64,000 nt of DNA from Rugalucina vietnamica. Taxonomy: Eukaryota; Mollusca; Bivalvia; Lucinida; Lucinidae. The translations under genes and the position numbers were made by a program. The stretch lies in the NCBI GenBank assembly GCA_964017185.1, contig OZ024876.1:14819726-14883725 (forward strand), given 5' to 3'. Under the pieces are notes generated by a model, which searched no databases, had not been told where the DNA came from, and saw only the letters and a program-made list of their open reading frames with translations. Shown in pieces: positions 3,028 to 54,090 of the stretch (the stretch's first letter is position 1; the number at the start of each line of letters is the position of its first letter).

Positions 3028-3031
3028 TATA

Positions 3032-8234: not shown

Positions 8235-9291
8235 CGTTCGAGAATTATGGACAATTCGGACCTTTGCTAATTCGGCCCTAGTCAATTTGGACTCTAAAAA
8301 AATCGGCCTTTAGTCAATTCGGACCTCGACCACTGGTAAATTCGGACCTCGACCACTGGTCAATTCGGACTTCAAAACAGAAAATCTTTGGTCAATTCGG
8401 AGCTTTTCTATTGGTCAATTCGGACCTTTTCCCTTGGTCAATTCGGAACTTAGTATAAACACAGGGATCCCATTTGAAGACACATTGATACACATACATA
8501 TCTCAATATAATACGTCCAAGTTAATGTTAAGGAGATAAATTGAAAGTGTATTTATATACGTGTATTATGTAATTTTAGATATAACTTTGCAAAAATGAT
8601 CTAACAAACACGACCAATTCAAAATAAACTTTGAATTTTTAGCTTATGAAACTTAAAGAAATTGATATCTCACGTAAAGAACCACCATTTAACATTTTAC
8701 AGTTTGCATGACGGACCGGCGTTCCATAATTTGGAATAATTTTATTTATAACAAAGTTTGTTTCTTTGTTGTTTAGGTCATTAGCGTCTTATATGATGAA
8801 ATGCACAATTGAAAACGTAAGGGTTTGTAAAGTTGTCTAAAATTGTGTTAAAGGCGCAGACAATGATTCCATTTTGGCCAGTTTCGACCTTGAATCGATT
8901 CAAGCATTGGCTGATTTGGACCTTATTTCTGTTTCACATTGTCTATCTTCTGATACTGAGCTCGGATCCGAGTACTGAGTCGATCAATTTCTGATCATCA
9001 CCTCAGGTAATGATTGGTCAATTTGGACCTTAAACACATTCTGACATTGGCTAATTCGGACCCTGAACGGAATCGGTCACTGGCTAATTCGGACCCGAAA
9101 CCGATTCGGACCTTGGCTAATTCGGACTCTATTCTCAAAAAATTATTGGTCACTTCGGACCTTGATTTTCCGGGGTCCGAATTGACCATGGTCGAGGTCC
9201 GAATTGTCCAAGGTCCGAATTGTCCAATGTCCGAATCGTCCACAGCCGAGGTCTGAAACAGGTCCGAATTAGCCGCCAAGGACCGAATTGT
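8235..9291. mobile_element. Foldback-like element F1 (unit GGTCCGAATTGTCCAA)
   Basis: Left array (8250-8450) repeats GGTCAATTCGGACC at 16- and 23-bp steps. A second forward array starts about 9014. An inverted array (9175-9291) repeats GGTCCGAATTGTCC at 16-bp steps (9197, 9213, 9229). Outer ends are inverted TGGACAATTCGG. The interior is AT-rich and non-coding. Exact outer boundaries and duplication could not be fixed because F2 inserted at the right end. Confidence 0.65.
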
Positions 9292-9300
9292 CCACGTATC

Positions 9301-9982
9301 GGTTCCGGGTCATTTCGGCCCATAACCATTTCGGCCCATGACCATTTCGGCCCATAACCATTTCGGCCCATACCATTTCGGCCCACAACCATTTAAGTCC
9401 ATAATCTTTATTCCTATGAATATAAAGGGAATTTGGGATGTCTTATTGTTACCTAGATGCATTATTCTTGATTTTAGTACTAATTTGATAATATTGGAGA
9501 TTGATGACGACATTCTCTGCGATTTTGGTCATTTTGGGTCTTATGGAGGTACGAGATTTAAGGCCGCTGATGCCAATTCTTTTCAATGATGCACATTGGG
9601 GATCGTTAGTTATTTCACTATTTTTGTTTTAAAATTATCTTGGTGCTTTTTATCTATGATTATAGAAATCTCTCATAAACCCCAATGGAATTCAAAACTG
9701 TTAAAACAAAATTTCAAACCTTTGACTCCATATGACACTAAATGGCAGGGATAATTTTTTCTTTTAAAAGAGACAAAATCTGCAAATAAAAACAATAAAA
9801 ACTGGCATAAACTCTTAATCGATTCATTTATCCATTAACGTATGCAAATAACAAACATCTAAACAAATACAAATACGGTATTATAGTAGTATACTTATGG
9901 GCCGAAATGGTTATGGGCCGAAATGGTAATGGGCCGAAATTGTCATGGGCCGAAATGGTTATGGGCCGAAATGACCAGTTAC
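9301..9982. mobile_element. Foldback-like element F2 (unit GGGCCGAAATGGTTAT), 9-bp TSD
   Basis: Five units at exact 16-bp steps at the left end (ATTTCGGCCC at 9312, 9328, 9344, 9360, 9375) and five inverted units at the right end (GCCGAA at 9901, 9917, 9933, 9949, 9965). The direct repeat CCACGTATC flanks it (9292-9300 and 9983-9991). The interior is AT-rich with no transposase. Nested in or beside F1. Confidence 0.85.
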
Positions 9983-10049
9983 CCACGTATCCAGTGTCAA
10001 ACTTAAAGCGGCTTACTCCAAAAATGAACCAAACAAGCATACCATTTCA

Positions 10050-10301
10050 ATGGAGGACGACGACTCAAAAAATCGATGCGATGAAGAAAATAAACTAGAA
10101 AAGGGCATAGAAAGCATAAAAGTAGCCCCCAAATATCCTGACGAAGCTGAAAATCCTGTGAGAGAAATAACACAAACTGATCATTTGAACAAGAAACTGC
10201 TGAGTGCATTTTTAGAGAAAATAAATGAGAAGGGAGATAATTCTGTTGAAACTGAAAACTGTTCGAAGAGCTCGGACTGGGAATCAGAAACCAAACAATA
10301 G
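10050..10301 (+). CDS. Unrecognised 83-residue charged ORF, possible small gene or last exon
   Basis: I do not recognise this protein. It is lysine- and acid-rich, begins MEDDDSKNR, has a leucine-bearing amphipathic stretch (HLNKKLLSAFLEKINEKG) and ends in an acidic Ser-rich tail. Composition looks like genuine coding sequence and unlike the repeat-derived ORFs around it. The frame is open upstream to 9975, so it could be a terminal exon rather than a complete gene. AATAAA at 10350-10355 lies 48 bp after the stop, a suitable polyadenylation signal. It lies between foldback elements F2 and F7. It could also be a chance ORF. Confidence 0.45.
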   Translation: MEDDDSKNRCDEENKLEKGIESIKVAPKYPDEAENPVREITQTDHLNKKLLSAFLEKINEKGDNSVETENCSKSSDWESETKQ

Positions 10302-10503
10302 GTGAATACCAATTTTGATTAGTATTGCTTCGTTAGGAATATTAGATGAAATAAAGGCACACCGCCTTATCTGCAACAAGGACCCTATATCGAGAGGACA
10401 GGATACTCAATGGAGATTGATCATAAAATATTGACTATGTACTATGCCACTTTTACTTGTCCGCTTAGCCGAAGCAGTCAATATTTTCATAGTGTATGTC
10501 GCC

Positions 10504-11093
10504 GGTCCATAGAAAAGCCGGAACGCACCAAAACACCAAAACGCACCTGTATTTACCAGAACGCACCATTTATATTTGTTTCTTATGCATATTGATGTTG
10601 GAAATAATTTATTGAAATGCATATTTGAATGCAGTGACGTTAACTGACTTACATTTATTTTCTAAATCTTTCATCATGTTTGCTTGAATTCTGTACTCAT
10701 AGGCAAAAGTTGTAAAGTGTTAAACTTGCTCGTCTGCCAATTGACTCCTCCGCCAGCAAGGTATAACCACGCCCACCCCTATTTCCTTAGACAAACATTG
10801 TGTTTTTGCACCTATATTTACCTGTAAAATGCATGTGTTGGTTTGTTTGTCTAACCCCCATGTTTTCTAACTGTCATTGACCGATAGCTTATGTGCTGAT
10901 TTGAATGGTCAATATAAAAATGAACACTAATTATGGGTGGTTTGACGGAGGACTCAATTAGCAACGAAGGATATTTAATCTAAAATGTTTTAACATACTC
11001 AATGTGCTTGATAACCCATTCTTTATGGTGCGTTCTGGTAAATACAGGTGCGTTTTGGTGTTTCGGTGCATTCCGGTATTTCTACGGACTCGC
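10504..11093. mobile_element. Foldback-like element F7 (CCRRAACGCACC units), 8-9 bp TSD
   Basis: Left arm holds three CCRRAACGCACC cores at 10518, 10536 and 10556. The right arm (11024-11085) is the inverted copy. Ends GGTCCATAG and, inverted, AGTCCGTAG. Direct repeat ATGTCGCC at 10496-10503 and 11094-11101. Arms of about 75 bp; the interior is non-coding. Unit spacing here is 18-20 bp rather than 16. Confidence 0.8.
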
Positions 11094-12948: not shown

Positions 12949-13486
12949 TAAACTGTTTCTCATTCTACTGACGAAATTAAGTCTTGGGTACTTTTAAACC
13001 TTTTCTAACTTAGGATTTATTATCTTACAATAACACAAAACAATGATTGAGCAAAGAAAGTGTAAAAACTTATTATCTTTTCTTTTGTGTCTTGATTGGT
13101 GTATTATCCCCAATTGCTGTTAATTTTTCACACCTCTGACAGATTCATAATTGAATAAGATGCATTGTACAGAAATGTGTTTTAGGCTATTTAAAGGTTT
13201 TGAAGTCATTTTAACCAAAATGGTCACAAAATTAAACTGCTTTCCCTCAGGGTCCCATTCTATTGCTAATTAGAGTGAACTTGAATATCATGTTTTCCAA
13301 ATGGGAAACTGACAGAAATTTTTGGTCAAACAATTCATTGTCATGTTCTTATGATTGTAAGATACCTGTGCAGTCAGATAGTTTAGCTGTTGTTAAGACT
13401 CTTTTAAGTTATGGTATGCCTCTTGACATTTTGTCGAGTTTAAAGGACAGTGCATGCAGACATTTAAATCTTTAGACATTTAAAAC

Positions 13487-14091
13487 CGGTGCATGACACT
13501 TTGCCGAAAACCACTTCGCCGAAAAGACATTTCGCCGAAACGACACAATGCCGAAAATTCTTCTCCGGTGCGACACTTCGCCGAAAGCTTCAAATGATTA
13601 ACAATGAGTTATGCTTGAGGGAAACTAACGTTATTAGACCTTAATTGTCTTAATGGGGACTTAATATCAGTTCATTTTAATTACGTGTTATGTTTGTTAT
13701 ACCTTGTTTGTTTATTTATGAAGTAAAATGTGTTCATGCCAATTATAATACGATTAGGTTAATCGCCATGTTTTATATTGGTCATATGTTAATTAGTTTG
13801 ATCGCCATAATTGGTCATTGATGTACCTAATCATTTATTTCCTTAAGAATTTAGAATGCCTCTCTTTATAGATTTATACATTGTAATCGTTAAAATCGTT
13901 ATAATGCTGTGGATTTAAGTAAAAGTTTAGAAAAAATCACATTCATTTGTATAAAATACTCTTAAAAACATCTTTTTCGGCATTTTTGCCGAATTTCGGC
14001 AATATTTCGGCGAAGTGTCGCATTCGGCAAAGTGTCGTTTCGGCAAAGTGTCTTTTCGGCAAAGTGGTTTTCGGCGAAGTGTCACGGACTC
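13487..14091. mobile_element. Foldback-like element F3 (unit CGCCGAAAAGACATTT), 8-bp TSD
   Basis: Left units (CCGAAA at 13504, 13519, 13535, 13551, 13581) and right inverted units (TCGGC at 14007, 14024, 14040, 14056, 14071) step by about 16 bp. Direct repeat TTTAAAAC at 13479-13486 and 14092-14099. Inverted ends CGGTGCATGACAC and GAGTCCGTGACAC. AT-rich, non-coding core. It interrupts an unrecognised 70-codon ORF of the hAT-like element just after that ORF's stop. Confidence 0.82.
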
Positions 14092-14187
14092 TTTAAAACT
14101 TGGAATGTTATTTTTTGTGATCATTCGCTCTTTTAACAATAAGCCAGCATAGTCAGCAAAATGATCTTTGAAGAATTAAAAAATATA

Positions 14188-21574: not shown

Positions 21575-22525
21575 TATGTCCTGCCAACCGAAGGTGGGGG
21601 ACATATTGTTTTTGGTGCGGATCCCGTCGGCGTACGCGTCCAAGTAGCTTCTTTCCGACCCAATATCTTTTGAACCAGTCGATGGATTTTGACCAAACTT
21701 GCATAGATACATGGTTGGGAGGGGGGAAAGAGTTGATTAGATTTTGGTGACCTTGATCTCATTTTCAAGGTCACCAGCCCATGAAAACTGATCAAATTAG
21801 ATTTTCCGACACAATATCTTCTGAACAAATGAATGGATTTTGACTTAACTTGCACAAGAGCATTGTTGGGAGGAGGCTCAGAGTTGATTAGATTTTGGTG
21901 ACCTTGACCTAATTTTCAAGGTCATGAGTCCATAAAAACTGTTGAAATTAGTCTTTCCAACGCAACATCTTGTAAACCAATTGATGGATTTTAACCAAAC
22001 TTGCACAGAAGCATTGTTGGGAGGAGGCTCAGAGATGGTTAGATTTTGATGACCTTGACCTAATTTTCAAGGTCACGAGTCCATAAAAACTGTTGAAATT
22101 AGTTTTTCCGATACGATATCTTGTAAACTAATTGATGGATTTTGACCAAACTTGCACAGAAGCATTTTGGGAGGAGGCTCAGAGTTGATAAGATTTTGGT
22201 GATCTTGACCTAATTTCCAAGGTCACTAGTCAAAAACTGTTGAAATTACTGGTAGTCTTTCTGACGTGATATCTTGTAAACCAATTGATGGATTTTGACC
22301 AAACTTGCACAGAAGCATTGTTGGGAGGAGGCACAGAGTTGATAAGATTTTGGTGACCTTGACCTAATTTCCAAGGTCACTAGTTCATAACTGTTGAAAT
22401 TAGTCTTTCGGATGCGATAACTTGTAAACCAATTGATAGATTTTAACCAAACTTGCACAGAAGCATTGTTGTGAGGAGGTTCAGAGTTTATAAGAATTTG
22501 GTGATTGTGACCTAATTTTAGACAG
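21575..22525 (+). repeat. Tandem-unit dispersed repeat, family V
   Basis: Opens with a hairpin (ATGTCCTGCCAACC to GGTGGGGGACAT), then about six units of roughly 150 bp, each with GGGAGGAGGCTCAGAG, GACCTTGACCTAA and TTTCAAGGTCA. Architecture resembles families P, Q, S and T. Each unit carries TCAAGGTCA, an SF-1/ERR-type half-site. Confidence 0.6.
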
Positions 22526-23371: not shown

Positions 23372-24387
23372 GGCCAAAATGACTCAGCACCGAAATGACT
23401 CTAAATTGAAACAAACCAGGACCAAAACGACACTGGACCGTGATCTGGGGCCGAAAGGACATGGGACCGAAATGACACAGGACCGAAGCGAGCAACAACC
23501 AGGTATCGGAATGACATGGGACCGAAACTCTAGATTGAAATGATCCAGGACTGAAATGAATCCAGATTGAAACAACCCAGGACCGAAATGACCGAGGGCC
23601 AAAACGACGCGGGATCTAAATAATACAGGGCCAAAACGACCCGGAACCAAAATCATCCAGGGCCAAAACGACCCGGAACCAAAATCATCCAGTGCTGGAA
23701 CTACCCTGGACCAAAACGATTGGGGACCAAAATGACCCTGGGCTGAAACGACTTGGGACTGAAATGACTAGATTGAAGTGACCTGGGACCAAAACAATCA
23801 GGTACTGAAATGACTGTGACCAAAACGACCTGGGTCTGAAACGATCCGGGACTGAAAAGACCCGGTACCAAAAAGACCCCAAACAAAAATGAACTTGGAC
23901 CAAAATGACCAGGTACCAAAATGATACGGGACCAAAATGACTCTAGATTGAAACGATCCGGGGCACAAATGACCCGGGACTGAAATGGCGCCACACGGGA
24001 CCGAAACGACTCCAGAATGAAACAGACCGACATGACCCGTCTGGGACCAAAACGACCTGGGACTGAAATGACTAGGATGAAACGATACGGGACTGAAATT
24101 ACCAGGTACCAAAATGACTGGGACAAAAACGACTCGGGTCATTCAAAGGGTCTGAATGACCCGTGACCAAAATGATATGGGACTGAAATGACTGGGTACC
24201 AAATCAACGGGGGCCGAAACAACCCTGCATTGAAAGGACCTGGGACCAAAATGATTCGGGACAGACTGCCTGGGGACTAAAATGACCCGGGGCTGAAATG
24301 ACCCAGGACCAAAACGACCCAGGACTGAAACAATGACTCGGGAATGAAATGAACCAGGGCTGAAAAGGCTCAGAACCGAAATGACAT
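23372..24387. repeat. Single-orientation 16-bp array F6 (unit GGACCGAAATGACCCG)
   Basis: About 1 kb of degenerate 16-17 bp units, for example AAATGACCCGGGGCTG then AAATGACCCAGGACCA then AAACGACCCAGGACTG (24281-24330). This is the same core as the foldback arrays, but no inverted partner array is visible. It ends 129 bp before NMRK exon 1. Long minus-strand ORFs here (repeating FGP/SFQSRV) are a product of the repeat. Confidence 0.8.
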
Positions 24388-24515
24388 AAAAATTCAATTA
24401 AAATCTTCCACAGAGAGAAGGAGTTATTGATGAATGATTTGCTGATCGACGATTCAGATTTTCTTATATCAACTTTATATTCCAGTAAAAAGAATTGTCT
24501 ACAAGATTTCTACTG

Positions 24516-42500: not shown

Positions 42501-45500
42501 AATCTTTTGAATGAAATTGCATTTTCAATCTGTTTTCTACATGAAATATTAACGATTTTGCACCTTGATGAAAATAGTATTTTACCTGACATGATCAGCT
42601 AATTACACACCCCCTGCAGTGAGCTACTGCATCAGCAACACCTTATTGCCCAGTTTTATAGTTGAAACCATATGCCAACTTCATGGTTCAGTGAAGAAAA
42701 AATGCACAAAAAAATTTATAAGAGATGTGTACGCTATGATTATACTGCAACAAATCAGCTCTTTTAAAAGTATTGATCATAGCACATTGAATAAGCACTT
42801 AAGTATTTGATAGTAGCAATGCAGTGAATTTGCACTTCAGTATTTGATCGTAACAATGCAATGGTTAGCTCTAAAGTATTTGATCATAGTAATGCATTAA
42901 ATGCATTAGTATTTGATCATAGCAATGCATTAAATAAGTGCTAAAGTATTTTGTCATAGCAATGCATTGAATACGCATGTATATTTGATATTTGATCATA
43001 GCAATGCGTTGAATAAGTGCTAACATGTTTTATCATAGCAATATGTTGAATAAGTGCTAAAGTATTTGATCATAGCAATGCATTGAATAAGTGCTAAAGT
43101 ATTTGATCATAGCAATGCATTAAATAAGTGCTAAAGTATTTGGTCATTGCAGTGCATTGAATAATTGAAAGTATCTGATCATGGCAATGCATTGTGTAAG
43201 TACTTAGGTATTTGATCATAGTAGTGCATTTGTTCATAGCTGTGCAATGAATAAGCATGAAAGTATTGCAAAAATAGTGACTTATTATTAAAGCTTTATT
43301 TGATCTGTGTCATAGAGGAAAACCTTGTGCCTAATAAAATTATTTAAAGCTCAATACATTGTATACTCTTCTAAATCCTAAATGTGAGATTCAAAGCAAT
43401 GACTGGGTTGGACCTACTGTCCATACACCATCTTGCAGAAACTACCTTTTTTCAAAGTCATTCTTAAACACCTCAAGAGAAATAAGTTTATGTCACCTGT
43501 TTGCATTTAAAAAGTCTCAAAAAGAGCCACAAAAATTTTGAAAATCGATTCATATATGATTTTTTTATTCAGTTTTAGGTGTGTTTCAAGATTATTTATA
43601 GGAATAGGTCCACAAACTATTGTGTATGCGTTTTATGAAAGCCTTCATGTAGCTGAACAGTTTGCATCAAATTTCATGAAAATCAACCAAGGTATAAGAA
43701 AATTATAGCGCTTTGAAAATTTTGATGGCCCAAATCCAGAACGAGGCTGTGAGGGTATGATGTCACTCCCTCACAATCATGGAATTATAAATATCTGCCA
43801 TTTCCATGCATATTAAAGTATGAAAGTTGTTGAAATACTTTTCATTCACTTTATAGAATCATATTGATCTGTTTTCGAATGTAAAAAGTAAGTCTACTAC
43901 TGTAAATAAGCACTTTTCCTTTTTGGTCATGTGACTACCTAAACAAAATGGCGGCCACCATAGGCGGCCATTGTTGAATCTTAAAACTCATATCTTCAAA
44001 ACCACTTAACCGATTTTGATAAATGTGGTGTCAAAATGTTTGTTTCGCTGATCTCTTTCTTTTGAAACGAAAGATAATGTTTGTAAACCTATTCCTTTAA
44101 GCTAATGTGAGAAAGGCCAATCAGTTGGTTGGGCGACAACGAGAGAACCCAGAGGAAAAACACCTGGCACATGCACAAGCAGAACTTTGCCAATGTCTCA
44201 TATGTGCCACATGTGGGGCTCGAACCCACACCAGACACAGCAGTGAGAGGATTAGAATGATTAAGCATATTAATGAAATATCAGCGCTCTTTACCACTCA
44301 TCCACGGGTTCAGTAGATTCTTTTTTCTTATGTCAGAAAGCAATTTTGAATAGGGCTTTTTACATTGGGAAAATTTTTACATTGGGAAAATGTGAGCAAG
44401 GTAAGTAACTATTTTTCTGGAAAATTTAAAAACTTATAATTTTTCATTTAAAATGCACCAAACCAAAAGAAAATTGTAAGGTATACATAAAATGAAGTCC
44501 AGCATTTAAAAATTATTTGAATATTTGCTAGAATTTCAAGTTTTTTGTTTTTTTGATTACCTCCCTTGTACATGCAAAAGACCTATCCAAGATTTTTTAT
44601 GCCCCCAACTTTGAAAAAGTTGGAAGGGCATATTGCTTTCGGTGTGTCTGTGGGTGGGTGCGTCTGTTAACTTTTGAACGGTGAATGCTAGGGTTTTGAA
44701 ATTTCATATGCACATTCCTCATGAAAAAATAGTTGACCCATATTTTTTTCATGTCTGAGTTATGCCCCTTTTCTGAGTTATGTCCCTTTGAAAACAAAAT
44801 TTGAAAATCTTGTGTGCAAGATATCTCAACAAGTATTCAAGCTAGAGCCTTCATATTTGGTATATTGGTTGGGTCTGAGGAGTAGATCACCTGGATAACT
44901 TTTGAGAACTTTACCGCAAATTTTGACAAAATTACGGAATTTTGAAATTTTGATTATTTTTTCAGTTTTTCAGTGAAATTTGAAACTTTTAAACGGTGAA
45001 TGCTAGGGTTTCGAAATTTCATATGCACATTCCTCATGAAAAAATAGTTGACCCGTATTTTTTTTCATGTCCGAGTTATGCCCCTTTTCTGAGTTATGTC
45101 CCTTTGAAAACAAAATTTGAAAATCTTGTGTGCAAGATATCTCAGAAAGTATTTAAGCTAGAGCATTCATATTTAGTATACTGGTTGGGGCTGAGAAGTA
45201 GATGACCTGATTAACTTTTGAGAACTTTCCGTCAAATTTTGACAAAAATACGGAATTTTGAAATTTTGATTGATCTTTCGAATTTTCGGTGAAAATTGAA
45301 ACTTTTGAACGCTGCATGCTAGGGTTTTGAATTTTAGTATACAGATCCCTTATGAAAAAATAGTTGACCCGTATTTTTTTTCATGTCTGAGTTATGCCCC
45401 TTTTCTGAGTTATGTCCCTTTGAAAACAAAATTTGAAAATCTTGTGTGCACAATATCTCAAAAAGTATTTGAGCTAGAGCCTTTATATTTGGTATACTGG

Positions 45501-46640
45501 TTGGGGCTGAGAAGAAAAATTACCTGATTAACTTTTGAGGACTTTCCGTCCAATTTTGACAAAATAACTCAATTTTGAAATTTTTACTCCATTTTAACTT
45601 GTCGGCATAAAGCTTACATTCTCTGTTTCTGGATCGAGGTCAAAACAGAAGCAACCGAACAGTTTCTACAGGAAATTAAATTTCACTTCATTCAAATGAA
45701 ATAAACAAACCCTACAATTTGCCAGTTTAAGGACAAACATACAGTTGGGGGCATAGTGTTTTACAAACACCCATTTCTAGTATGTTTCATGTTTTTTGCA
45801 TGATGAGAACAAGTCTTATATCTGTAAACCAGAATTCTTATCTTACTGTTATGCACATATTATGCAAATGAATTAATTAGCACCTAGAGTCTTTAGCAGC
45901 ATTTACCTGTATTTTGCTCAAGTTTCCTTACTTTAACCCTGAGATAAAGATGTATAGTATATATCTCTGTTTAACCCGATATTCAAAGTGTTATTTGTTG
46001 GTCAAATTTAACATTTGAAAAACGAAATTCAATTAACTTTTCCTCCTCTTTAACTCTATAGCCTTAAATTTTTTGTACAATTTAAAAACAAAAAACTTAT
46101 ATATTTTACATTCTTTTGATTAAGGTATCAGATTACCTTTTAATGACCAAGCAGATATCAGACTCGACCACCACAGCATTTTATTGCCATAATTAATACA
46201 TGGTAAATCAAAGCCACCTGTTATCAGCAGGAAGCCTCAAAACCGCACTTCCTTATCTAATCCAAGTTAGCACCTATTTTCTCGGGTAACCACACTTAAT
46301 TTTATAAGAGAATGTTCTCAGCATGGGCATTAAATTTTTGTGAGTGAACCATTTTCAAAATTTATGCAACATTTTTTAGGACTTTTGGAATGCAAAAGGA
46401 TGTCAAGGTCATAAATTTCTTGAGGTGTTTCAAATAAGGGTGATTTTGAAAAAGGCAGTTTCTACAAGATTGTGTAAGGACAGTAGTCAGGCTTTCACAA
46501 GACAACATTCATTTCATAAGACATACTTGTTATTACTGTTTGTGTTTATTTCAGTTTATGTGGATGGCAACACTGGCATAGAAAGACTATACAACCAAAT
46601 ATGTAGTGACATTAGTGAAAGGTTAAATATTCAAAGATGA
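24516..46640 (+). CDS. NMRK1: Nicotinamide riboside kinase gene, 7 coding exons over 22 kb (196 aa)
   Basis: Phosphorylates nicotinamide riboside with ATP to give NMN, the salvage entry to NAD; expected in the cytosol. Coding exons: 24516-24562, 27151-27241 (or alternative 28039-28129), 28384-28447, 30858-30984, 39190-39261, 41223-41326, 46555-46640. All introns are GT-AG, phases match throughout, and the sum is 591 bp. The N-terminus ends AISG, followed by the P-loop TTNSGKTT (Walker A at 16-23) and the QDDFF motif at 41-45. VLFVDGFSIFG matches the ILIIEGFLLF strand of human NMRK1. The lid region reads RRRARHYDPPDVPGYF (human RRSTRVYQPPDSPGYF), then VWPEYLK, and the last exon VYVDGNTG (human VVYLDGTK). 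Length is close to human NMRK1 (199). NMRK1 is favoured over NMRK2 on length only. Introns are almost entirely repeats. Confidence 0.9.
24581..24796 (-). repeat. MITE-B copy 3
   Basis: Starts 18 bp after the exon-1 donor of NMRK1, so the intron begins almost directly with the element. Central palindrome somewhat diverged. Confidence 0.8.
25040..25320 (-). repeat. MITE-A copy 3
   Basis: Complete copy with perfect core GAACCGCCTCGGCGAGGCGG (25164-25183). A poly-T run follows at about 25418-25449. Confidence 0.85.
25584..26850 (+). repeat. MITE-B copy 4, split by family T element
   Basis: Left part 25584-25732 stops within CTTCTAACCTTTTTT. The right part resumes at about 26774 with TCTGTGACTGGAAAGGC and runs to about 26850. 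The intervening 1 kb is element T1, giving a natural map of that element's ends. Confidence 0.75.
25734..26770 (+). mobile_element. Helitron-like element family T copy 1
   Basis: Begins ATACCCCGCCACTTTAAAAA with hairpin partner AGTGCGGGGTAT, then GTCCGTCTGTCCGTCCGTCC. About six internal units of roughly 150 bp follow (CAATTTTCTTCAAACTTTGT; GAAGGAGTGGTTTGGGATTG). It closes with GGCGGGGTATCATGC. Inserted in a T-run inside MITE-B with no clear target duplication. Confidence 0.62.
26897..27136 (-). repeat. MITE-B copy 5, abutting NMRK1 exon 2
   Basis: Its right end lies 14 bp before exon 2, so the branch point and most of the polypyrimidine region of that acceptor must come from the MITE. Confidence 0.85.
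27151..27241 (+). CDS. NMRK1: NMRK1 coding exon 2a (P-loop exon)
   Basis: 91 bp after acceptor ATGAACAG, donor GTAAGC. Encodes the end of the Walker A loop (NSGKTT) and QDDFFL. Phase 2 in, phase 0 out. Duplicated at 28039-28129. Confidence 0.88.
27268..27504 (-). repeat. MITE-B copy 6
   Basis: Starts 27 bp after the exon 2a donor. A matching but truncated MITE start follows exon 2b at 28163-28185, so the flank is part of the duplicated block. Confidence 0.85.
27540..27749 (+). repeat. MITE-B copy 7, central deletion
   Basis: Oriented opposite to its neighbours. The left arm of the central palindrome is largely missing (sequence passes directly from GTGAAAACTGAAGC to the right arm). Confidence 0.75.
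27787..28016 (-). repeat. MITE-B copy 8, abutting exon 2b
   Basis: Ends 22 bp before the alternative exon 2b, paralleling copy 5 before exon 2a. Confidence 0.82.
28039..28129 (+). CDS. NMRK1: NMRK1 alternative exon 2b (duplicate P-loop exon)
   Basis: 91 bp after acceptor TAATTTAG, donor GTAAGC, with the same entry and exit phases as exon 2a. Of 30 codons about 12 differ silently and 5 change the residue (Q32N, K34R, N35S, G40C, F45G). NSGKTT and QDD are kept. If both exons were included the frame would break (91 is not a multiple of 3), so use should be exclusive. Selection on the protein is implied by the silent bias; expression is unproven. Confidence 0.75.
28384..28447 (+). CDS. NMRK1: NMRK1 coding exon 3
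   Basis: 64 bp between acceptor TGTTTCAG and donor GTATAC. Encodes SPADPRLAEIYLPDIGHHNW, equivalent to the human segment after QDDFF. Confidence 0.85.
29210..30835 (+). repeat. MITE-A copy 4, split by family Q element
   Basis: Left half 29210-29298 ends in CCTATTTTT. The right half resumes at 30651 with TCTTATTTTTGCTCC and runs to about 30835. Joined at that point the halves read like the intact copies at 4228 and 62448. Its right end lies about 22 bp before NMRK1 exon 4. Confidence 0.85.
29299..30650 (+). mobile_element. Helitron-like element family Q copy 2
   Basis: AGCTCACCTGAGC hairpin start, GCGTCCGTCCGGCGTC tract, internal units with ATCTTCTTCTCCAGAACC and GACCTTGACCTATTTTA. It ends with an AGGACCATTTGTCCT hairpin and CTGG, then a T. 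Boundaries are defined by the interrupted MITE-A; no target duplication visible. Confidence 0.68.
30858..30984 (+). CDS. NMRK1: NMRK1 coding exon 4
   Basis: 127 bp, acceptor GCTTCCAG, donor GTAAGT. Encodes FRALDMERMV through LFVDGFSIFGW, the helix and strand before the substrate-binding region. Confidence 0.88.
31380..31611 (-). repeat. MITE-B copy 9
   Basis: Complete; the central palindrome has diverged to GCTGTGCAGTTACTGCACAGC. Confidence 0.8.
35462..37987. promoter_or_regulatory. Array of ten palindromic AGGTCAnnnTGACCT sites, 128-bp period
   Basis: AGGTCACTGTGACCT occurs exactly at 35462, 36928, 37056, 37184, 37313 and 37442. Variants with a perfect 13-base half-site palindrome start at 37589 (ATA spacer), 37717 (GGGTCA), 37845 (CTA) and 37973 (GTG). 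Steps are 128-129 bp, once 147. It matches the classical estrogen-response element. It lies in NMRK1 intron 4 inside element S1; a regulatory effect is inference. Confidence 0.6.
35524..36856. mobile_element. 1.33-kb inverted-repeat transposon with 5-bp TSD
   Basis: Arms of about 100 bp begin CACGGCTAACAAACCTTTAA at both ends. Direct repeat ATTAG at 35519-35523 and 36857-36861. Neighbouring units of the host array show the empty site (CTCAATTAGTATATTTTC). No ORF, so non-autonomous. CAC ends and a 5-bp duplication recall Transib-type elements; assignment tentative. Confidence 0.85.
39190..39261 (+). CDS. NMRK1: NMRK1 coding exon 5
   Basis: 72 bp, acceptor TTGTTGCAG, donor GTAAAA. Encodes PLLPLFDRKYFIKIDRDICE and TRR. 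Element Q3 ends only 40 bp upstream. Confidence 0.87.
39483..39718 (-). repeat. MITE-B copy 10
   Basis: Complete, in NMRK1 intron 5. Confidence 0.82.
40040..40470. repeat. 431-bp MITE with about 140-bp inverted repeats
   Basis: Ends CAAGGTGG with direct repeat ATGAAG outside (40034-40039 and 40471-40476). Strongest arm segment is AAGTGCACATACCCCGGAA and complement (40156 and 40339 onward). A 64-codon ORF inside is not considered coding. Confidence 0.75.
40542..40744 (+). pseudogene. NMRK1: Truncated duplicate of NMRK1 exon 6 and its 5' flank
   Basis: GTGGTGGAGGCAGTATG (40545) and TGGAATTATTTCTTCTTGTT (40692) recur before the true exon at 41109 and 41191. The exon copy starts at 40724 after GTTGTAG and reads R-ARLYDPP in the correct phase. 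It then runs into the family Q fragment at about 40743, losing the rest of the lid and the donor. It could act only as a decoy acceptor. Confidence 0.75.
40743..41100 (+). mobile_element. Family Q element fragment (5'-truncated)
   Basis: Only the last internal unit and the 3' end (AGATCTCAGGTGAGC, GGACCATTGGTCC hairpin). It lies between the two copies of the exon 6 region. Confidence 0.6.
41223..41326 (+). CDS. NMRK1: NMRK1 coding exon 6
   Basis: 104 bp, acceptor TTGTTGTAG, donor GTTTGT. Encodes ARHYDPPDVPGYF, VWPEYLKHLEAIGEQQDI; the PPD-PGYF and VWP motifs are diagnostic for the kinase. Confidence 0.9.
41340..41570 (+). repeat. MITE-B copy 11
   Basis: Begins 13 bp after the exon 6 donor. 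Confidence 0.82.
41777..42012 (-). repeat. MITE-B copy 12
   Basis: Centre GCTGTGCAGTTACTGCACAGC, the same subtype as the copies at 31380 and 48083. Confidence 0.82.
42130..43275. repeat. 37-bp minisatellite, interrupted
   Basis: Unit resembles AGCAATGCATTGAATAAGTG plus CTAAAGTATTTGATCAT (exact 37-bp step at 43074 and 43111). The block 42240-42780 interrupts it with a hairpin (GAGATACCTTTCA and complement, 42270-42312) and AT-rich sequence; no gene seen there. Confidence 0.75.
43276..44195. other. NMRK1 intron 6, nothing recognised
   Basis: AT-rich intron DNA with only short ORFs. A segment at 43920-44060 (GGCGGCCACCATAGGCGGCC) resembles internal units of bivalve dispersed repeats. Confidence 0.35.
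44196..44312 (-). repeat. tRNA-derived SINE-like head
   Basis: On the minus strand GAGTGGTAAAGAGCG resembles a pol III A box. About 60 bp later GTGGGTTCGAGCCCCAC contains a B box (GGTTCGAGCCC). The spacing suggests a tRNA with a long variable arm. No acceptor-stem pairing seen, so a SINE relic is likelier than a tRNA gene. Confidence 0.4.
44599..45780 (+). mobile_element. Helitron-like element family P copy 2
   Basis: Same ends as P copy 1: GCCCCCAACTTTGAAAAAGT hairpin, GTGTGTCTGTGGGTGGG tract, and 3' GGGGGCATAGTG hairpin with CTAG. Three to four internal units of about 310 bp (GTTATGCCCCTTTTCTGAG) are unrelated to those of copy 1. Confidence 0.6.
46555..46640 (+). CDS. NMRK1: NMRK1 coding exon 7 (terminal)
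   Basis: Acceptor TTATTTCAG; encodes VYVDGNTGIERLYNQICSDI and the C-terminus SERLNIQR, then TGA. The split Val codon completes from exon 6. Confidence 0.88.
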
Positions 46641-48773
46641 TATATGTGTTCTAAGATACTGTTTTATAAAGCTTGAAAATGTTATTGGAAAATCAATTTC
46701 ACACAAATCCAAGTTCTTGCAAGTATTTTTTTAAAAAAATACATTTTTATCTATATATTGATAGTTAGGCTCTCACATGAATTCAAAGACTTGTATGGAA
46801 GCAGAAAATTTGAGAACTAAAGGTCATGTGAAAAATTTTAAACTTACAGTACATGTAAATGTGCCATCTCATGAGAAAACCAACAATCTGTACATACAAA
46901 AACAAAGGCGCAGATCAGCGTGGCAGTAACTGTGAAGCTGATCAGCACCTTTGTTTTCACTACATGGATAGTTCTATTCCTCTGCTACTTATATACAAAT
47001 TTTCAAGCTGCTAGCGTTTTTCTGTACAGATCTGTGTCGGACCTGGTTTGGAAATCCAAATTGTTGGTTTTCTCATGTGATTGCTCATTTGTATTGAGTT
47101 ACATCAAGGGAATTCCATCTTTACAACAAATAAGCCTTTCAAATTAATTTGGCTCCAATTGATATTGCAAGCAAGCTTCTGCATAACGAAAACACTCCCA
47201 TGCAATTTACATTGATTTTTAGAGCTGTAAAAATTGAACATTTTTAGTTGAAAAATTTTGATATTTTTCTTAATTTTGCTCAAAAAATAGATTGTGGGTA
47301 CTCGTTAGAACTGCTCGGCGATTGTACCCCCAATCAATGTTTTATGCAAAAATGTTGAAGACATCAGATTTTTTCCACTGAACCTTTTAATTTTTTACAG
47401 TCCCCCCAAAAACTCTGTAGATTGCTTGGACAAGTTTTCATAATCAAATCTGTGGAGAAATCTGTAGACTTCCTGAGAATTTTCAAAAATGTAGAAACCT
47501 TTTCCACACACTTAAAAACGACATTTCTGGTAGTGAGGCATTTTTAAATGATATAAAAAGTTAACATTCATTATCTTTGATTAAACTAAGAAAGTTTAGC
47601 AATGTGAATTTCTGATGAATGGAAATTGTTCTTTTGTTACTTCAAACATTTGGAGTAGTGTTGATTTAAAAGCATTGCATTTTAATATTCCTAATAATTG
47701 TGAAACCAATCTTCACTTGAGGGATCAAACATGATTTCCCATTCATTAACATTTGAATCACTGCACCAGAAAACCAACAACCTGCATTATGCAAAAACAA
47801 AGATGCAGATCAGCGGTGCAGTAACTGCAAAGCTGGTCAGCGCCTGTTTTCACTACACAGATAGTACAATCCTTCTTCTTAAATTTGAAATTTCAAGCAC
47901 CTAGCTTGCTTTTGTGACTGTACAGCCTGGTTTGTGTCGGACCTGGTTGGAAACCAGAATAGCTGGTTTTCTCATGTGAGAGCTCATTTTACTAGGTCCT
48001 GAAGGGAGTGTTGAAGACCGAGGGTGTAGCCTCTAGTTTAGGGATCTTGAAACATACAATCTCTTTGACATTATACATCATTTGAGTGGCGACGCAAGAA
48101 AACCACCAGTATTCGGGGTTTCTGATCAGGCCTGACACAAACCGGGCTGTACAGTCACAGAAGATGGCTAGAAGCTTGAAATTATAGATACATATAAGTA
48201 TAAGAGGGATTGTACTATCTGTGTAGCGAAAACAAAGGCGCTGATCAGCTGTGCAGCTGAGCTGTAACTGCATAGCTGATCTGCGCCTTTGTTTTTGCGT
48301 AGGCAAAAATCTGGTTTTCTTATGACAGGGCTCACATACTGTAAACACATGTATTTACTGAGCTCTTGTGATAATGACAAATCAAAAAACTAAAATGCAG
48401 CAAAAAATTGAAATTTAGATATGGCCGACATGCATGTTTTTCATAGTTATTGCAAAATTTACACTGTCCTTACACTATATTTCAGAAAGTGTCTCTTTTC
48501 AAAATCACACTTTTTTGAAACACCTTAAGAAAAATCTAATGAGGTACATTTGTGTATGTCATTCTTTTGCATCCCAAAATAATAAGTGCCGCAAAAATTT
48601 TGAAATTCCATCACAAATAAGAATTTCAGGCTGGAAAATAATTTCAAGATTTTGGATTACCTTCTTAGTTTGTAAATGCAGAATGCCTGTTTAAGATGAT
48701 TTTTGGGCTTTAAAATTTTATCAGAGAACAGACTTTCAAATTTTTTGTGGCACTTTTGGAATGCGAAAGGAAG
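46641..48773. other. NMRK1 downstream region, repeats only
   Basis: Contains MITE-B copies at about 46861-47087 (+), 47755-47986 (+) and 48083-48334 (-), and a scrambled MITE-A copy at 47195-47445 whose central palindrome is largely lost. I found no clear AATAAA close after the stop and no further gene. Confidence 0.6.
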
Positions 48774-49580
48774 GGATCCATGACATTTCGTCTAAAACCA
48801 TTTCGTCTAAAAGCCATTTCATCTAAAGGACATTTCGTCTAAAAGACATTTGGTCTAAATGACATTTTGTCTAAAGGACATTTCGTCTAATGGACATTTC
48901 GTCTAATGGACATTTCGCCGAATACGACATTTCGTCTAAAATTTGTCTAAAAATGTCTAAATTCGTCTAAAATTCGTCTAAAACTCATCTAAAACATAAA
49001 TGATAAGGAAAATATTTTTGAACAACATTTTATTGGATATCATTTCATTATTTAATATGACAAATTGTAGCCATTCCCTCCAGCGATGTTGCAGCAGTAT
49101 CTTTTATTTTAAAAATATATAATGCTTTTATTGTTTACCAATCAACAACTGCAACAGACAACAATGGACCAAAACTAAACACTGCATTATAGCTACCAGT
49201 CTGATAGCTACCAGTCTGATAACTGCTCACAATGACCAGTTAAGATAGATCAATATACATGTATTGTCACCATAAGCTTGCAGGTAAAGGGAAATGATAA
49301 ATAAATATTTCAAGTCACATCTATGAAATTGATTTCCAGTAAGGTGCGACATTTAAATAAATTCTTATTTTTTCTTAACCTTTTTTTAGACCAAATGTCG
49401 CACCCACTAGATTTTTTAGACGAATTGTCCATTAGACGAAATGTCCTTTAGACCAAATGTCTATTAGACGAAATGTCCTTTAGACGAAATGTCCTTTAGA
49501 CGAAATGTCTTTTAGACGAAATGTCCTTTAGACGAAATGGCTTTTAGATGAAATGGTTTTAGACGAAATGTCCTGCACCC
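48774..49580. mobile_element. Foldback-like element F4 (unit GACGAAATGTCCTTTA), 9-bp TSD
   Basis: Left units CATTTCGTCTA at 48784, 48799, 48815, 48831, 48847, 48863, 48879, 48895 and 48911 (nearly all 16-bp steps). Inverted units at 49430-49570. Direct repeat GAAAGGAAG at 48765-48773 and 49581-49589. Inverted ends GGATCCATGACATTTCG and GGGTGCAGGACATTTCG. AT-rich core, no ORF. Confidence 0.9.
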
Positions 49581-49823
49581 GAAAGGAAGATAGAGTCATA
49601 ATTTTCTGCCACTGGAAGTGTTTCAGAAAAGCATGATTTTGAAAGAGGCAGTTTCTGAAAGATGTTTAACGGACAGTAGCTCTGCAATCTGAGAGAAATT
49701 TGTCACTATGTCAATTTCAATCTTAAACAAAAATCAAGTGACAGAAAAGAGGGTTGGATTATGGTAATTAAGTATGGCTTGCATGCTTCAGTTGCTGTGT
49801 TCATGGTGAACAGGTTAGACATT

Positions 49824-50151: not shown

Positions 50152-51807
50152 TGAGCCGTGACATGAGAAAACCAGTCTCTAAGGTTTCCAACCAGGTCTG
50201 ACACAAACCAGCCTGCACAGTCAAACAAGCAGACTAGAAGCTTGACATTTCGGATTTTTAAAAGTAGAAGAGATTATACTATCCATGTAGCGAAAACAAA
50301 GGCGCTGATCAGCTGTGCAGATACTGTTATGCAGATTGTTTGTTTTTATTAGCTCGCCTGCACGAAGTGCATAGAGCTATTGTAGTCACCTCGGTCGTGC
50401 TCGTTTACGTTTACGTGTGCGTCCGCGTCCGGGTCACACTTTCGGTTAAAGTCTATATCTCTTGACCATGTTGATGGATCAAGTTGATACTTTGCATGTT
50501 GCTAGATATTGGTCTGAAGTTTTACGCAGTACCATCATGACCCACCCTGGGTGACCTTGAGGTCAAGGTCACGGACTTAGAAATTTTGTGTTTAAGTTTT
50601 TGGTTAAAGTTTTTGTAAGTCTATATCTCTTGACCTTAGTGATGGAATGAGTTGATACTTTGCATGTTGCTAGATATTGGTCTGAAGTTTTACGCAGTAC
50701 CATCATGACCCACCCTGGGTGCCTTGAGGTCAAGGTCACAGACTTAGAAATTTTGTGTTTAAGTTTTTGGTTAAAGTTTTTGTAAGTCCATATCTCTTGA
50801 CCTTATTGATGGATTGAGTTGATACTTTGCATGTTGCTAGATATTGGTCTGAAGTTTTACGCAGTACCATCATGACCCACCCTGGGTGCCTTGAGGTCAA
50901 GGTCACAGACTTAGAAATTTTGTGTTTAAGTTTTTGGTTAAAGTTTTTGTAAGTCCATATCTCTTGACCTTATTGATGGATTGAGTTGATACTTTGCATG
51001 TTGCTAGATATTGGTCTGAAGTTTTACGCAGTACCATCATGACCCACCCTGGGTGCCTTGAGGTCAAGGTCACAGACTTAGAAATTTTGTGTTTAAGTTT
51101 TTGGTTAAAGTTTTTGTAAGTCCATATCTCTTGACCTTATTGATGGATTGAGTTGATACTTTGCATGTTGCTAGATATTGGTCTGAAGTTTTATGCAGTA
51201 CCATCATGACCTACTCTTGGTGACCTTGAGGTCAAGGTCACAGACTTAGAAATTTTGTGTTTAAGTTTTTGATTTAAGTTTTTGTAAGTCTATATCTCTT
51301 GACCATGTTGATTGATCGAGTTGATACTTTGCATGTTGGTAGATATTGGTCTGAAGTTTTATACAGTACCATCATGACCTACCCTGGGTGACCTTGAGGT
51401 CAAGGTCACAGACTTAGAAATTTTGTGTTAATTTTTTTGGTTAAAGTCTAAATCTCTTGAACATGTTGATGGATAAAGTTGATACTTGCATGTTGATAGA
51501 TATTGGTCTCGGGTTTTATGCTGTACATCACAACTCACCTGGATGACCTTGAGGTCAGGGTCACGGACTTGGAAGTTTTGTGTTTAAGTTTTGGTTAATG
51601 TTTTTATAAGTCTATATCTCTTGAACATGTAGATTGATCAAGTTGATTCTTTGCATTGGTCTGAATTTTTATGTTATACCATCATGACCCACCTGAGTGA
51701 CCTTGAGGTCAAGGTCATGGGTCATAGATTTTAACAGATGTAGTGGCAAAGCACAAGTCAGGCGAGCTACGCTGTCCTGCGACAGCTCTTATCTGATGCA
51801 TTGGCTC
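50152..51807 (-). repeat. MITE-B copy 17, split by family S element
   Basis: Left part ends at about 50347 in GTTTGTTTTT. The right end resumes at 51793 as CTGATGCATTGGCTCA. Confidence 0.72.
50351..51792 (+). mobile_element. Helitron-like element family S copy 2
   Basis: AGCTCGCCTGCACGAAGTGC start, GTTTACGTTTACGTGTGCGT tract, about eight units of roughly 168 bp (those at 50590-51180 nearly identical). It ends GCTGTCCTGCGACAGCTCTTAT. Each unit carries TGAGGTCAAGGTCA. Confidence 0.68.
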
Positions 51808-52073
51808 ATAATTATGCTCTTCTTGAATCAGCAGTAGAGGAAGAAAATGGTTGTAGAAATATGTGCTGGATGTTCGATCACTGGTCCGCTTCATTACAAA
51901 TGGGACACACTATTGACTGAGCTATGGCACCATAAAATGTGTACAACACATAGAAAAAAAAGTGAATAATCTATGTTTGAATCTATGTATAAATAGAAAC
52001 AAAAACATTTTAGTTCTCTGTGTTTTCCTATTATTTTATAGATGTGATTGAGCTATGGGGCGGGCTAACATTT

Positions 52074-52309
52074 TGAGCCGCCTCGTGGGAAAACCAACAA
52101 TGTGGTTTCCGACCAGGTACGACACAAACCAACCTGTACAAGCACAGAAAAGAGCTAGAAGCTTGTAATTTTGGATTGAAGTAGAAGAGAAATTGTACTA
52201 TCCACGTAGCGAAAACAAAGGCGCTGATCAGCTTCGCAGTTACTGCGAAGCTGATCTGCGCCTTTGTTTTCGCCTATGCAGATTGTTGGTTTTCCCATGA
52301 GGTGGCTCA
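52074..52309 (-). repeat. MITE-B copy 18
   Basis: Complete. On either side, two copies of a local direct repeat (TTTTAGTTCTCTGTGTTTTCC at 52009 and 52618) show a small duplication in this region. Confidence 0.8.
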
Positions 52310-53202
52310 TATATTTGACTCTACCAGATAGTCTTAATTCTTACTGAAAGGTACATAACCAATGAAGGGCTATTACCATGGTACTTTATTACTTCCCCAT
52401 TAACTCGGACTTTGATAGTAAATATTTGCATTCTGAATCTGATGGACATTTTTTTACTTTTAAGTGTTTGTCAAGTGATATTGTTTCATTTAGTGGACTG
52501 GTACCAGTCTGTTGATTGATCTATGGCACCTGATGCTAATGGTAAAACGTATACAACATGTAGAAAAAAAGTGAATAAATCTATGTTTGAATATATGGAT
52601 ACATAAAAACAAAAACATTTTAGTTCTCTGTGTTTTCCTATTATTTTATAGATGTGATTGAGCAATGGGGCAGTCTAACATTTATTAGCAGGATAAATTA
52701 ATGGCTTTGGTCTGCCATTTTGGGCCATTTCGGAATTTATTAGAAGTTTAGATTTTAATCTCAGCTGAGTTGAGCGTGAAAAAAGTTTTATAATCTTGGG
52801 ACCTGGAATGCATGGACATGGAATTATATGTAATCATGTCAGACAAAGTAAGAATAGAGGGACCAGGAATGGATGCAATTGAATTTAAAGTCCCAACATA
52901 GACACCAGGTGGGAAAGAAAATACATCAAAATACATACCAAAACATTTTTCTGACAACACACTCGAAGAGCAGGATGACTAGCTCTTTCCCGACAAGGTA
53001 GCCATTCAGAACCAAAGGCAACAAGCACAACTTAGAGGCAGACAGAATAAACAGAAGATGTATCATGAAGATAAATCATTTTACTGGGATGCTGTTTTTA
53101 TTGTTTTTACTGGGGACAATGCTGATTACTGGTTTTACTGGGGACATTTTCAAAAATTACATAAAAGCAAACATAGTGTTCAACTGGCAAACAGTTCCGA
53201 AC
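52310..53202. other. Intergenic, no supported gene
   Basis: A 61-codon ORF at 53065 begins with ATG and a hydrophobic stretch (MLFLLFLLGTMLITGF) but runs into element F5 and rests on a local TTTACTGGGG repeat. Not called as a gene. Confidence 0.4.
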
Positions 53203-53470
53203 GGTTGTGGCCCGGTATTCCGAGGGCACTATAGTCCGAGGGCCCGGTAGTCCGAGGGCCCGATGGTCCGAGGGTCCGATGGTCCGAGGGCCCGATAGTC
53301 CAAGGGTCCGATGGTCCGAGGGCCCGATGGTCCGAGGGCCCGATGGTCCGAGGATTTATGGAATAAATCCAATACCAATATTCTGATTCTCGGACTAGCG
53401 GGCCCTCGGACTATTGGGCCCTCGGACTATCGGACCCTCGGACTATCAGGATCTGCAACATTTTCCAAGG

Positions 53471-53538
<68 letters not shown>

Positions 53539-53652
53539 GCGCGCACGCACACACGCACGTGCTTTCATACATACACATACATACCTATACACGAATACAG
53601 ATACATTCTTACACAATGATACATACATACATACATACATACATACATACAT

Positions 53653-53691
<39 letters not shown>

Positions 53692-54081
53692 CGCACGCAC
53701 GCACGCACGCACACACGCACGCACGCACACTTTTTAGTTCAGTTTAACGCCCCTGTCAAGATTATTTCACTCGTCGATCACTTTTGAAAAGAGGAGGAAA
53801 TTGAAGTACCCCATGCATGGCGATCACATTCAAATGAATTAATTATTTTCCTTTAACCTCCTAAGAGGAACGCATTGGTAGTGGCCTTCAATTGAAGCTC
53901 CGTGATCAGTGGTTGTCAGAGTGATACAGCAAATTACGTGTTGTACAGTGTAATCTTCTGATCCTCGGACTATCGGGCCCTCGGACCATCGGGCCCTCGG
54001 ACCATCGGGCCCTCGGACTATCGGGCCCTCGGACTAACGGACCCTCGGACTACAGGGCCCTCGGAATACCGGGCCTACACG
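53203..54081. mobile_element. Foldback-like element F5 (unit GGTCCGAGGGCCCGAT), 9-bp TSD
   Basis: Left units GTCCGAGGG at 53234, 53250, 53266, 53282, 53298, 53314, 53330 and 53346, every step 16 bp. Inverted units follow directly at 53388-53450 and again at the right end (53963, 53979, 53995 onward). Inverted ends share GGCCCGGTATTCCGAGGGC. Direct repeat GTTCCGAAC at 53194-53202 and 54082-54090. The core holds (CA)n and (CATA)n microsatellites. Confidence 0.9.
53472..53730. repeat. CA, CATA and CGCA microsatellites
   Basis: (CA)n at about 53473-53535, (CATA)n at about 53617-53670, then CA and CGCA runs to 53728. Overlapping His/Thr- and Cys/Val-repeat ORFs here are artefacts. Confidence 0.9.
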
Positions 54082-54090
54082 GTTCCGAAC

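What the first reader, a model, noticed from the sequence alone, without database searches (positions are those of the whole stretch)
8235..54090. Seven arrays with a shared degenerate 16-bp unit: a foldback superfamily whose unit diverges but whose length persists
Aligned on CCGAA the units read GGTCCGAATTGTCCAA (F1), GGGCCGAAATGGTTAT (F2), TCGCCGAAAAGACATT (F3), TAGACGAAATGTCCTT (F4), GGTCCGAGGGCCCGAT (F5) and GGACCGAAATGACCCG (F6). The pattern is about GGnCCGAAATGnCC. Within an element the units are homogeneous and step by 16 bp almost without exception; between elements they differ. F2, F4 and F5 have perfect 9-bp duplications, F3 and F7 8-9 bp. Ends of F3, F4 and F7 share (G)GGTCCRTGACA-like sequence. 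Nine-bp duplications with arrayed inverted arms fit Mutator-like or foldback elements. The constant period suggests the arrays are transposase-binding sites that co-evolve with a protein and homogenise locally.
Basis: seen in the sequence. Interest (0 to 1): 0.88.

Follow-up and report, generated by a model that had tools for sequence, protein, structure and literature searches.

The report
Foldback transposons with 16-base end arrays
This stretch of what is probably an animal genome holds several families of small jumping DNA elements whose two ends are built from a short 16-letter unit repeated many times, possibly handles for the enzyme that moves them; the kind is known, but these related families let one ask how such handles evolve.

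Summary
The arrays are real. F2-F5 are foldback-type DNA transposon insertions: inverted 16-bp arrays, fixed asymmetric ends, target-site duplications, each multi-copy in an unnamed 1.09-Gb genome. F4 copies show 9-bp duplications (24 of 30 loci), F2 and F3 mainly 8-bp (9 of 11; 10 of 11); mismatched flank pairs never match (0 of 870, 90, 110). Clean empty sites were found for three F4 copies. F2's two end types pair inverted in 66 of 66 cases. F2, F3 and F4 have homologous ends (F3-F4 38 of 50 bases), so a superfamily exists but is smaller than claimed: F1 resembles F2 only and is irregular, F5 shows weak hints at one end, F6 is an unpaired minisatellite, no F7 array was found. A 123-kb flank sample shows no excess of 16-bp arrays; local homogenisation was not seen. 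Most likely these are non-autonomous elements moved by a Mutator-like (MULE) transposase binding the repeated units. MULEs exist here, one inside inverted 43-bp arrays, but no MULE between 16-bp ends was proven; two candidates failed their checks.

The parts
8249..9293 (.). F1: old inverted pair of irregular arrays (periods 23, 33, 16), ends GGACAATTCGGNCC; no target duplication seen
   Evidence: arms 8248-8370 / 9175-9294, 73%
9301..9983 (+). F2: foldback element, 683 bp, ends GGTTCC / GGTAAC, inverted 16-bp arrays 9308-9388 and 9895-9976; inserted at the very end of F1
9293..9300 (.). F2 target-site duplication, left copy (CACGTATC; its first base is the last base of F1)
9984..9991 (.). F2 target-site duplication, right copy
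13487..14091 (+). F3: foldback element, 605 bp, ends of CGGTGC / GGGTCC type, inverted 16-bp arrays
13479..13486 (.). F3 target-site duplication, left copy (TTTAAAAC)
14092..14099 (.). F3 target-site duplication, right copy
23372..24390 (+). F6: degenerate 16-bp minisatellite, not paired, no defined ends
48774..49580 (+). F4: foldback element, 807 bp, ends GGATCC / GGGTGC, inverted arrays 48779-48941 and 49414-49575
48765..48773 (.). F4 target-site duplication, left copy (GAAAGGAAG)
49581..49589 (.). F4 target-site duplication, right copy
46324..46486 (.). Degenerate (72%) relative of the F4 insertion site, without the element
53203..54081 (+). F5: foldback element, 879 bp, arrays 53219-53353 and 53963-54075 inverted, an extra inner array 53389-53447 and an inner CA/CATA microsatellite
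53194..53202 (.). F5 target-site duplication, left copy (GTTCCGAAC)
54082..54090 (.). F5 target-site duplication, right copy

Best explanation
F2, F3, F4 and F5 are non-autonomous, MITE-sized foldback DNA transposons that insert by a cut-and-paste type of transposition and duplicate 8 or 9 bp of target (shown by duplications for all four, by empty sites for F4). F2, F3 and F4 descend from a common ancestor whose terminal inverted repeats were built from 16-bp units (supported by the outer 50 bp). They are mobilised in trans by a Mutator-like (MULE) transposase supplied from elsewhere in the genome (inferred). The 16-bp units are repeated binding sites of that transposase, which recognises ATTTCGNC or its relatives read inward from each end; the unit diverges as transposase and ends drift together, while the spacing, about one and a half helical turns, is kept by the way neighbouring transposase molecules pack (inferred, untested). 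Each copy seems to inherit its arrays as a block from the family's source; no sign of re-homogenisation within copies was seen (a test that did not reach significance either way).
For: Transposition: F4 9-bp duplication 9/9 in 24 of 30 loci, control 0 of 870 mismatched flank pairs at 8 or more of 9; exact 8 bp or longer in 9 of 11 F2 (one of the 11 not scored, an end is lost) and 10 of 11 F3, controls 0 of 90 and 0 of 110. Empty sites with a single target copy: L012 in L027 (94% over 298 columns), L016 in L032 (95%), L011 in L108 (100% over 40); these are 3 of 28 joined sites. Families: 40 scored copies each, the scoring limit and the window copy included, for F4 and F3 (89-100%), of 410 and 273 first-look candidates; F2 40 scored of 617 (69-100%), 109 and 107 exact ends, reversed pattern 0; F5 40 scored of 949, 206 exact ends, reversed 0. 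F2 ends: with all 100 + 100 listed places, 66 pairs within 15 kb, 66 of 66 inverted and of mixed end type, 562-6846 bp. Homology: F3-F4 76% over 50 bp with no gap, z 11-12; F2-F4 z 6.6-8.7; F2-F3 z 4.5-7.0. MULE: 59 PF10551 matches at E 0.001 or less, 47 FLYWCH matches, several beside MULE domains as in Phantom; L071 is an 889-aa MULE plus PHD-finger frame between inverted 43-bp arrays, 949-1200 and 6355-6600. Tm1, a Phantom-type MULE of nematodes, has the same plan: asymmetric ends, about 14-bp tandem units, mostly 9-bp duplications (PMC3169594, abstract and passages).
Against: No MULE inside 16-bp-array ends was shown. Of 9 MULE loci looked at out of 59 (3 with much of their flanks, 6 on one side only), none has a 16-bp array. 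The one F2 end beside a MULE (C7:63137615, MULE 2.7 kb away) has no second array in 39 samples of 28-30 bases between 63140740 and 63143992; 63137721-63140739 stayed unsampled and short or decayed arrays could be missed; by my arithmetic such a neighbourhood is expected about 0.06 times by chance, and typical F2 sizes would place the other end before the MULE. The 5.2-kb F5-ended stretch at about C2:78024421-78029652 holds a FLYWCH match, but its two flanks share no duplication and its right end is damaged, and no MULE match lies there even at E 10. F2 and F3 duplicate 8 bp, which hAT, P and Merlin elements also do (recalled). Binding by the units was not tested.
Confidence: 0.62

Rival explanations
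1. The same foldback transposons, but moved by a transposase of another superfamily with 8-9-bp duplications (hAT, P or Galileo type, Merlin), so that the foldback shape and arrays are convergent.
For: F2 and F3 duplications are 8 bp. Galileo shows that P-type transposases can have array-filled long ends with several binding sites (PMC3688188, abstract and passages). No 16-bp array lies at the 9 MULE loci examined, and no PF10551 match lies inside the three longest F2-end pairs, 3.5-6.8 kb (comparing).
Against: F4, with ends homologous to those of F3, duplicates 9 bp in 24 of 30 loci, the usual MULE length; ends begin with GG, not CA (hAT and P ends, recalled). Arrays inside inverted ends are documented for a Phantom-type MULE and seen at L071 here. 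No non-MULE transposase family was searched for genome-wide.
Confidence: 0.25
2. The 16-bp arrays have no function: they are slippage products that grew inside the inverted ends of MITEs, and unit likeness only reflects descent.
For: Array length varies: F4 left arms 12-14 units, right arms 9-12. Other inverted arrays in this genome have other periods: 43 bp (L071) and 33 bp (L016 flank). F6 is a free minisatellite of similar sequence.
Against: Period 16 and an inward ATTTCG core are kept in F2, F3 and F4 while the rest of the unit changes, and F5, whose unit is not significantly like those of F2-F4, also has period 16. Repeated sites bind transposase in Galileo (passages).
Confidence: 0.3
3. 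They are not transposons: palindromic minisatellites that arose in place.
For: F1 and F6 show no duplications and F6 no fixed ends.
Against: Target duplications, dispersed copies and fixed ends for F2-F4, and empty sites for F4.
Confidence: 0.01

Closest known systems
Tm1, Mutator/Foldback elements of root-knot nematodes (Phantom-type MULE)
   Same: Asymmetric terminal motifs outside the inverted repeat, a variable number of short tandem units in the ends (13-15 bp, mostly 14), 8-10-bp (mostly 9) duplications in 45 of 53, MITE-like copies (PMC3169594, abstract and passages)
   Different: Here the unit is 16 bp with another sequence (ATTTCGNC core), several sister families coexist with 8- or 9-bp duplications, and no copy with a transposase was proven
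Foldback elements of Drosophila and Tetris of D. virilis
   Same: Long inverted ends with inner tandem repeats, 8-10-bp duplications, no coding capacity, autonomous partner not found for Tetris (PMC4079207, abstract and passages)
   Different: Tetris repeats are about 220 bp; Drosophila FB units were not compared (recalled only)
Rehavkus and the array-bearing MULE L071 of this genome
   Same: 9-bp duplication, ends up to 400 bp, PHD finger and a minisatellite before the 3' end (Rehavkus, PMC6446971 passages); L071: MULE domain with PHD finger and arrays near both ends
   Different: L071 has 43-bp units unlike the 16-bp unit; its duplication was not resolved
Galileo (P superfamily)
   Same: Foldback-like long ends with several transposase-binding sites, shown by footprint and gel shift (PMC3688188 abstract and passages)
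   Different: P-type THAP transposase, direct repeats far longer than 16 bp; no THAP gene was looked for here

Membership tests
Cut-and-paste DNA transposon (TIR order), non-autonomous | Inverted ends, target-site duplication, dispersed copies, empty sites | tested here: met
   F4 24 of 30 with 9/9; F2 9 of 11 and F3 10 of 11 with 8 or more; three clean empty sites, all F4
Foldback-type element | Ends composed of short tandem repeats | tested here: met
   F2-F5
MULE (Mutator-like) superfamily | 8-11-bp duplications (PMC6446971 passages) | tested here: met
   8 bp (F2, F3) and 9 bp (F4; F5 in the window copy)
MULE (Mutator-like) superfamily | MULE transposase encoded between the same ends | tested here: inconclusive
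   C7:63137615 second end not found; C2 stretch no shared duplication and no MULE match; 9 of 59 MULE loci examined for arrays, none with 16 bp
Phantom-type MULE | FLYWCH plus MULE transposase between ends with arrays | tested here: inconclusive
   FLYWCH next to MULE exists in this genome but not shown between 16-bp arrays
P superfamily (Galileo) | THAP-type P transposase | not tested
   No genome searches left
hAT, Merlin | Superfamily-specific transposase and ends | not tested
   No family search made; ends begin GG, not the CA of hAT ends (recalled)

The most novel reading that the evidence does not exclude
One transposase lineage drives a whole set of foldback families in this genome whose binding unit changes letter by letter but whose 16-bp pitch cannot change, because transposase subunits must stack side by side at a fixed helical phase; F5, whose unit is not significantly like those of F2-F4 but keeps the same pitch (and whose left end shows weak likeness to F4), would then be an extreme member, and the pitch would be the conserved trait rather than the sequence.
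Probability: 0.25. Interest if true: 0.65.

Novelty: new member of a known kind. Interest (0 to 1): 0.42.

Why it matters
A 2013 study states that it was untested whether the tandem repeats of Foldback and Phantom ends act as binding sites (PMC3688188, passage). Several multi-copy sister families in one genome, with homologous ends, differing units and differing duplication lengths (8 against 9 bp), are a natural experiment for that question. The families also bear on how such inverted arrays are kept: the F4 copies give no sign of re-homogenisation within copies.

Tried and rejected
Tried without success: finding the autonomous partner through MULE flanks (L071-L073, L115-L120), through large F2-end pairs (L114, between two halves of one F2 copy, has 31-bp inverted ends and no open frame of 150 aa, probably a nested insertion), and through FLYWCH and relaxed PF10551 searches. 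The CCGAAATGTCCGC pairs lying 8-30 kb apart looked like large autonomous relatives: L070 is an 8.7-kb element with about 1.1-kb inverted ends starting in 16-bp units, but I could find no target duplication, its inside holds an endonuclease fragment of a non-LTR element, and the inside of a second one (L121) showed a frame that looks like reverse transcriptase (by eye) and no obvious transposase (L121 frames were not run against Pfam). Rejected: one shared unit for all six arrays; local homogenisation; a general 16-bp preference; a 9-bp duplication for F2. Results that cut the other way: in an ungapped test F5's left end matches F4 at 21 and 23 of 50 and F3 at 20 of 50 (p 0.002, 0.0006; 0.007-0.013), though gapped scores are near the top of the shuffles; the F5 right end was framed 3 bases too early by my slip and was redone. 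L018's relatives lack the target stretch and were not counted as empty sites. L104 (F3) and L080 (F2) show no clean duplication with fixed ends; L074 was not scored. The first count for F4 scored 28 of 30 loci and gave 24 with 9 bp, 3 with 8 and one (L032) only with a shifted end; one search scored all 30. Not done: copies of F1 were not searched genome-wide. The host was not identified beyond probably an animal (two rhodopsin-type receptor frames).
Full report
The window lies at C8:14819726-14883725 of an unnamed 1.09-Gb genome in 47 contigs. Two rhodopsin-type receptor frames suggest an animal.

Observation. Tandem Repeats Finder gives eleven non-redundant period-16 arrays in the window, of 38 arrays with period 8-40; twenty first-order Markov simulations gave none of period 16. 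Among the inverted pairs printed for the window (within 3 kb, near-duplicates dropped), strong self-likeness at a shift of 16 is found at F2 (0.78), F4 (up to 0.73) and F5 (up to 0.88), less at F1 (0.50) and F3 (0.48); the others reach at most 0.40. So the paired arrays are real. F1 is irregular and F6 is unpaired. No seventh array was found.

Transposition. F4 ends GGATCC at one side and GGGTGC (read inward) at the other. Of 30 fetched copies, 24 have a perfect 9-bp duplication and one more (L032) has 8 of 9; 0 of 870 mismatched flank pairs reach 8. Of the remaining five, three (L011, L017, L031) have an exact 8-bp duplication, while L015 and L027 have none that is clean. F2 (GGTTCC / GGTAAC) has an exact 8-bp duplication in 9 of 11 copies (L080 fails, L074 not scored) and F3 (GGGTCC / CGGTGC) 8 bp or more in 10 of 11 (L104 fails); controls 0 of 90 and 0 of 110. 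Joining the flanks of 28 F4 copies and comparing them with the DNA then held found clean empty sites for L012 and L016, and L108 shows one for L011; the window's own F4 has a degenerate relative at 46324-46486. F2 sits exactly on the end of F1, its duplication sharing F1's last base.

Families. F4: 40 scored copies, nearly all full length, at 89% or more (410 first-look candidates). F3: 40 scored at 89% or more (273 candidates). F2: 40 scored of 617 at 69-100%; 109 and 107 exact 27-bp ends, reversed control 0; from all 100 + 100 listed places, 66 pairs within 15 kb, all inverted and all mixed in end type, none of the same type, sizes 562-6846 bp with 16 copies at 668-705 bp. F5: 40 scored of 949, 206 exact 18-bp ends, reversed control 0.

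Relations. Over the outer 50 bp F3 and F4 agree at 38 of 50 positions without a gap; F2 aligns to F4 with one inner gap (score 17.5, best of 1000 shuffles 2.5) and to F3 (11.5 against 1.0). F1's left end aligns to F2 (8.0 against 3.0, and 10.0 against 5.5) but not to F3 or F4. F5 is ambiguous: its left end matches F4b at 23 of 50 without gaps (p 0.0006), but gapped z is at most 3.4, with scores near the shuffles' best. In F2, F3 and F4 the core reads ATTTCGNC or ACTTCGCC inward from both ends.

Period. In F4 arms 436 of 616 steps are 16 bp. Across the genome the pattern CCGAAATG, gap of 1-31, CCGAAATG occurs 1278 times against 116 for its reversed control; of the 100 places listed, 61 have spacing 16, 15 have 17 and 11 have 15, but many are copies of one family: of 47 bins of 5 kb, 26 hold a 16 step and 14 hold only 17, the large family of L070 among them. 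In 123 kb of F4 flanks and MULE loci only 4 of 69 arrays have period 16. So 16 looks like a trait of these families, not of arrays in this genome; the sample is small and not random.

Homogenisation. Scores between the two arms of one F4 copy average 133.4 and between arms of different copies 133.2 (28 of 30 copies, permutation p 0.17): no sign of re-homogenisation within copies.

Source of the transposase. PF10551 gives 59 matches at E 0.001 or less and FLYWCH 47, side by side in several places (for example C12:13319973 and 13320510, each in a 437-aa open frame). L071 shows a MULE plus PHD-finger frame between inverted 43-bp arrays. L116, L117 and L119 have 34-, 36- and 43-bp arrays on the one side fetched, L120 a 39-bp one. 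None of nine MULE loci shows 16-bp arrays. Two candidates arose: an F2 end 2.7 kb from a MULE match at C7:63140349, where no second array was found in the samples taken, and a 5.2-kb stretch at about C2:78024421-78029652 bounded by F5-type ends around a FLYWCH match, whose flanks share no duplication. Neither is proven.

Mechanism. Shown: cut-and-paste type insertions of F2-F4, and of F5 in the window copy. Well supported: common origin of F2-F3-F4. Suggested: block inheritance of arrays. Inferred: mobilisation by a MULE, units as binding sites, pitch fixed by protein packing. The literature offers the same plan in Tm1 and binding to several sites in long ends of Galileo. Two MULE surveys were read in passages only: PMC6446971 notes minisatellites for Rehavkus and aphid Phantom, PMC13359780 notes conserved G/C at the first three end bases; the word tandem occurs in neither. 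Literature searches made; among the rows listed (16, 5, 5, 12 of 22, 8) none names, by title and opening of the abstract, a 16-bp array family of this kind; most subscription papers are not in that library.

Verdict: a well-supported new set of foldback families, of a known kind; the claimed superfamily holds for three of them, and the functional claims remain open.

Noticed in passing
L070 (C1:68261000-68270700), about 516-9195; similar end pairs at C1:20645746/20675812, 38840692/38855274, 41312991/41333805, C2:15646407/15658641: Family of 8-30-kb structures with inverted ends (about 1.1 kb, mostly 95-100% alike in L070) starting in GGACCGGAATGTCCGC units; the inside of L070 holds a non-LTR fragment, no transposase was seen there or in L121, and no target duplication was found
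   Followed up: partly
L071 (C3:72687000-72694500): MULE with PHD finger, 889-aa frame, between inverted 43-bp arrays; resembles Rehavkus by the PHD finger
   Followed up: partly
L072, L073: MULE frames of 1445 and 1754 aa with extra parts: a FAR1 domain in L072, a sub-threshold Ulp1-type peptidase match and long acidic runs in L073
   Followed up: no
L112-L113 (C4:48315455-48316175): An F3 copy inserted beside another array of period 16 with unit CCCATTTCGCCTACTC, a possible further family
   Followed up: no
L016 flank: Inverted pair of 33-bp arrays
   Followed up: no
window 58231-62250: YqaJ-type recombinase frame facing a DDE_Tnp_4 transposase frame: probably another DNA transposon
   Followed up: no
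window 3032-6460: Two neighbouring rhodopsin-type receptor frames
   Followed up: no
window 35524-36856: A TIR element of about 1.3 kb with 102-bp arms (90%) next to a 128-bp tandem array at 36857-38068
   Followed up: no
window 21652-22519, 25829-26699, 32303-33086, 33355-34456, 44669-45584, 50449-51656: Many different satellite-like arrays of 150-320 bp in one 64-kb window
   Followed up: no
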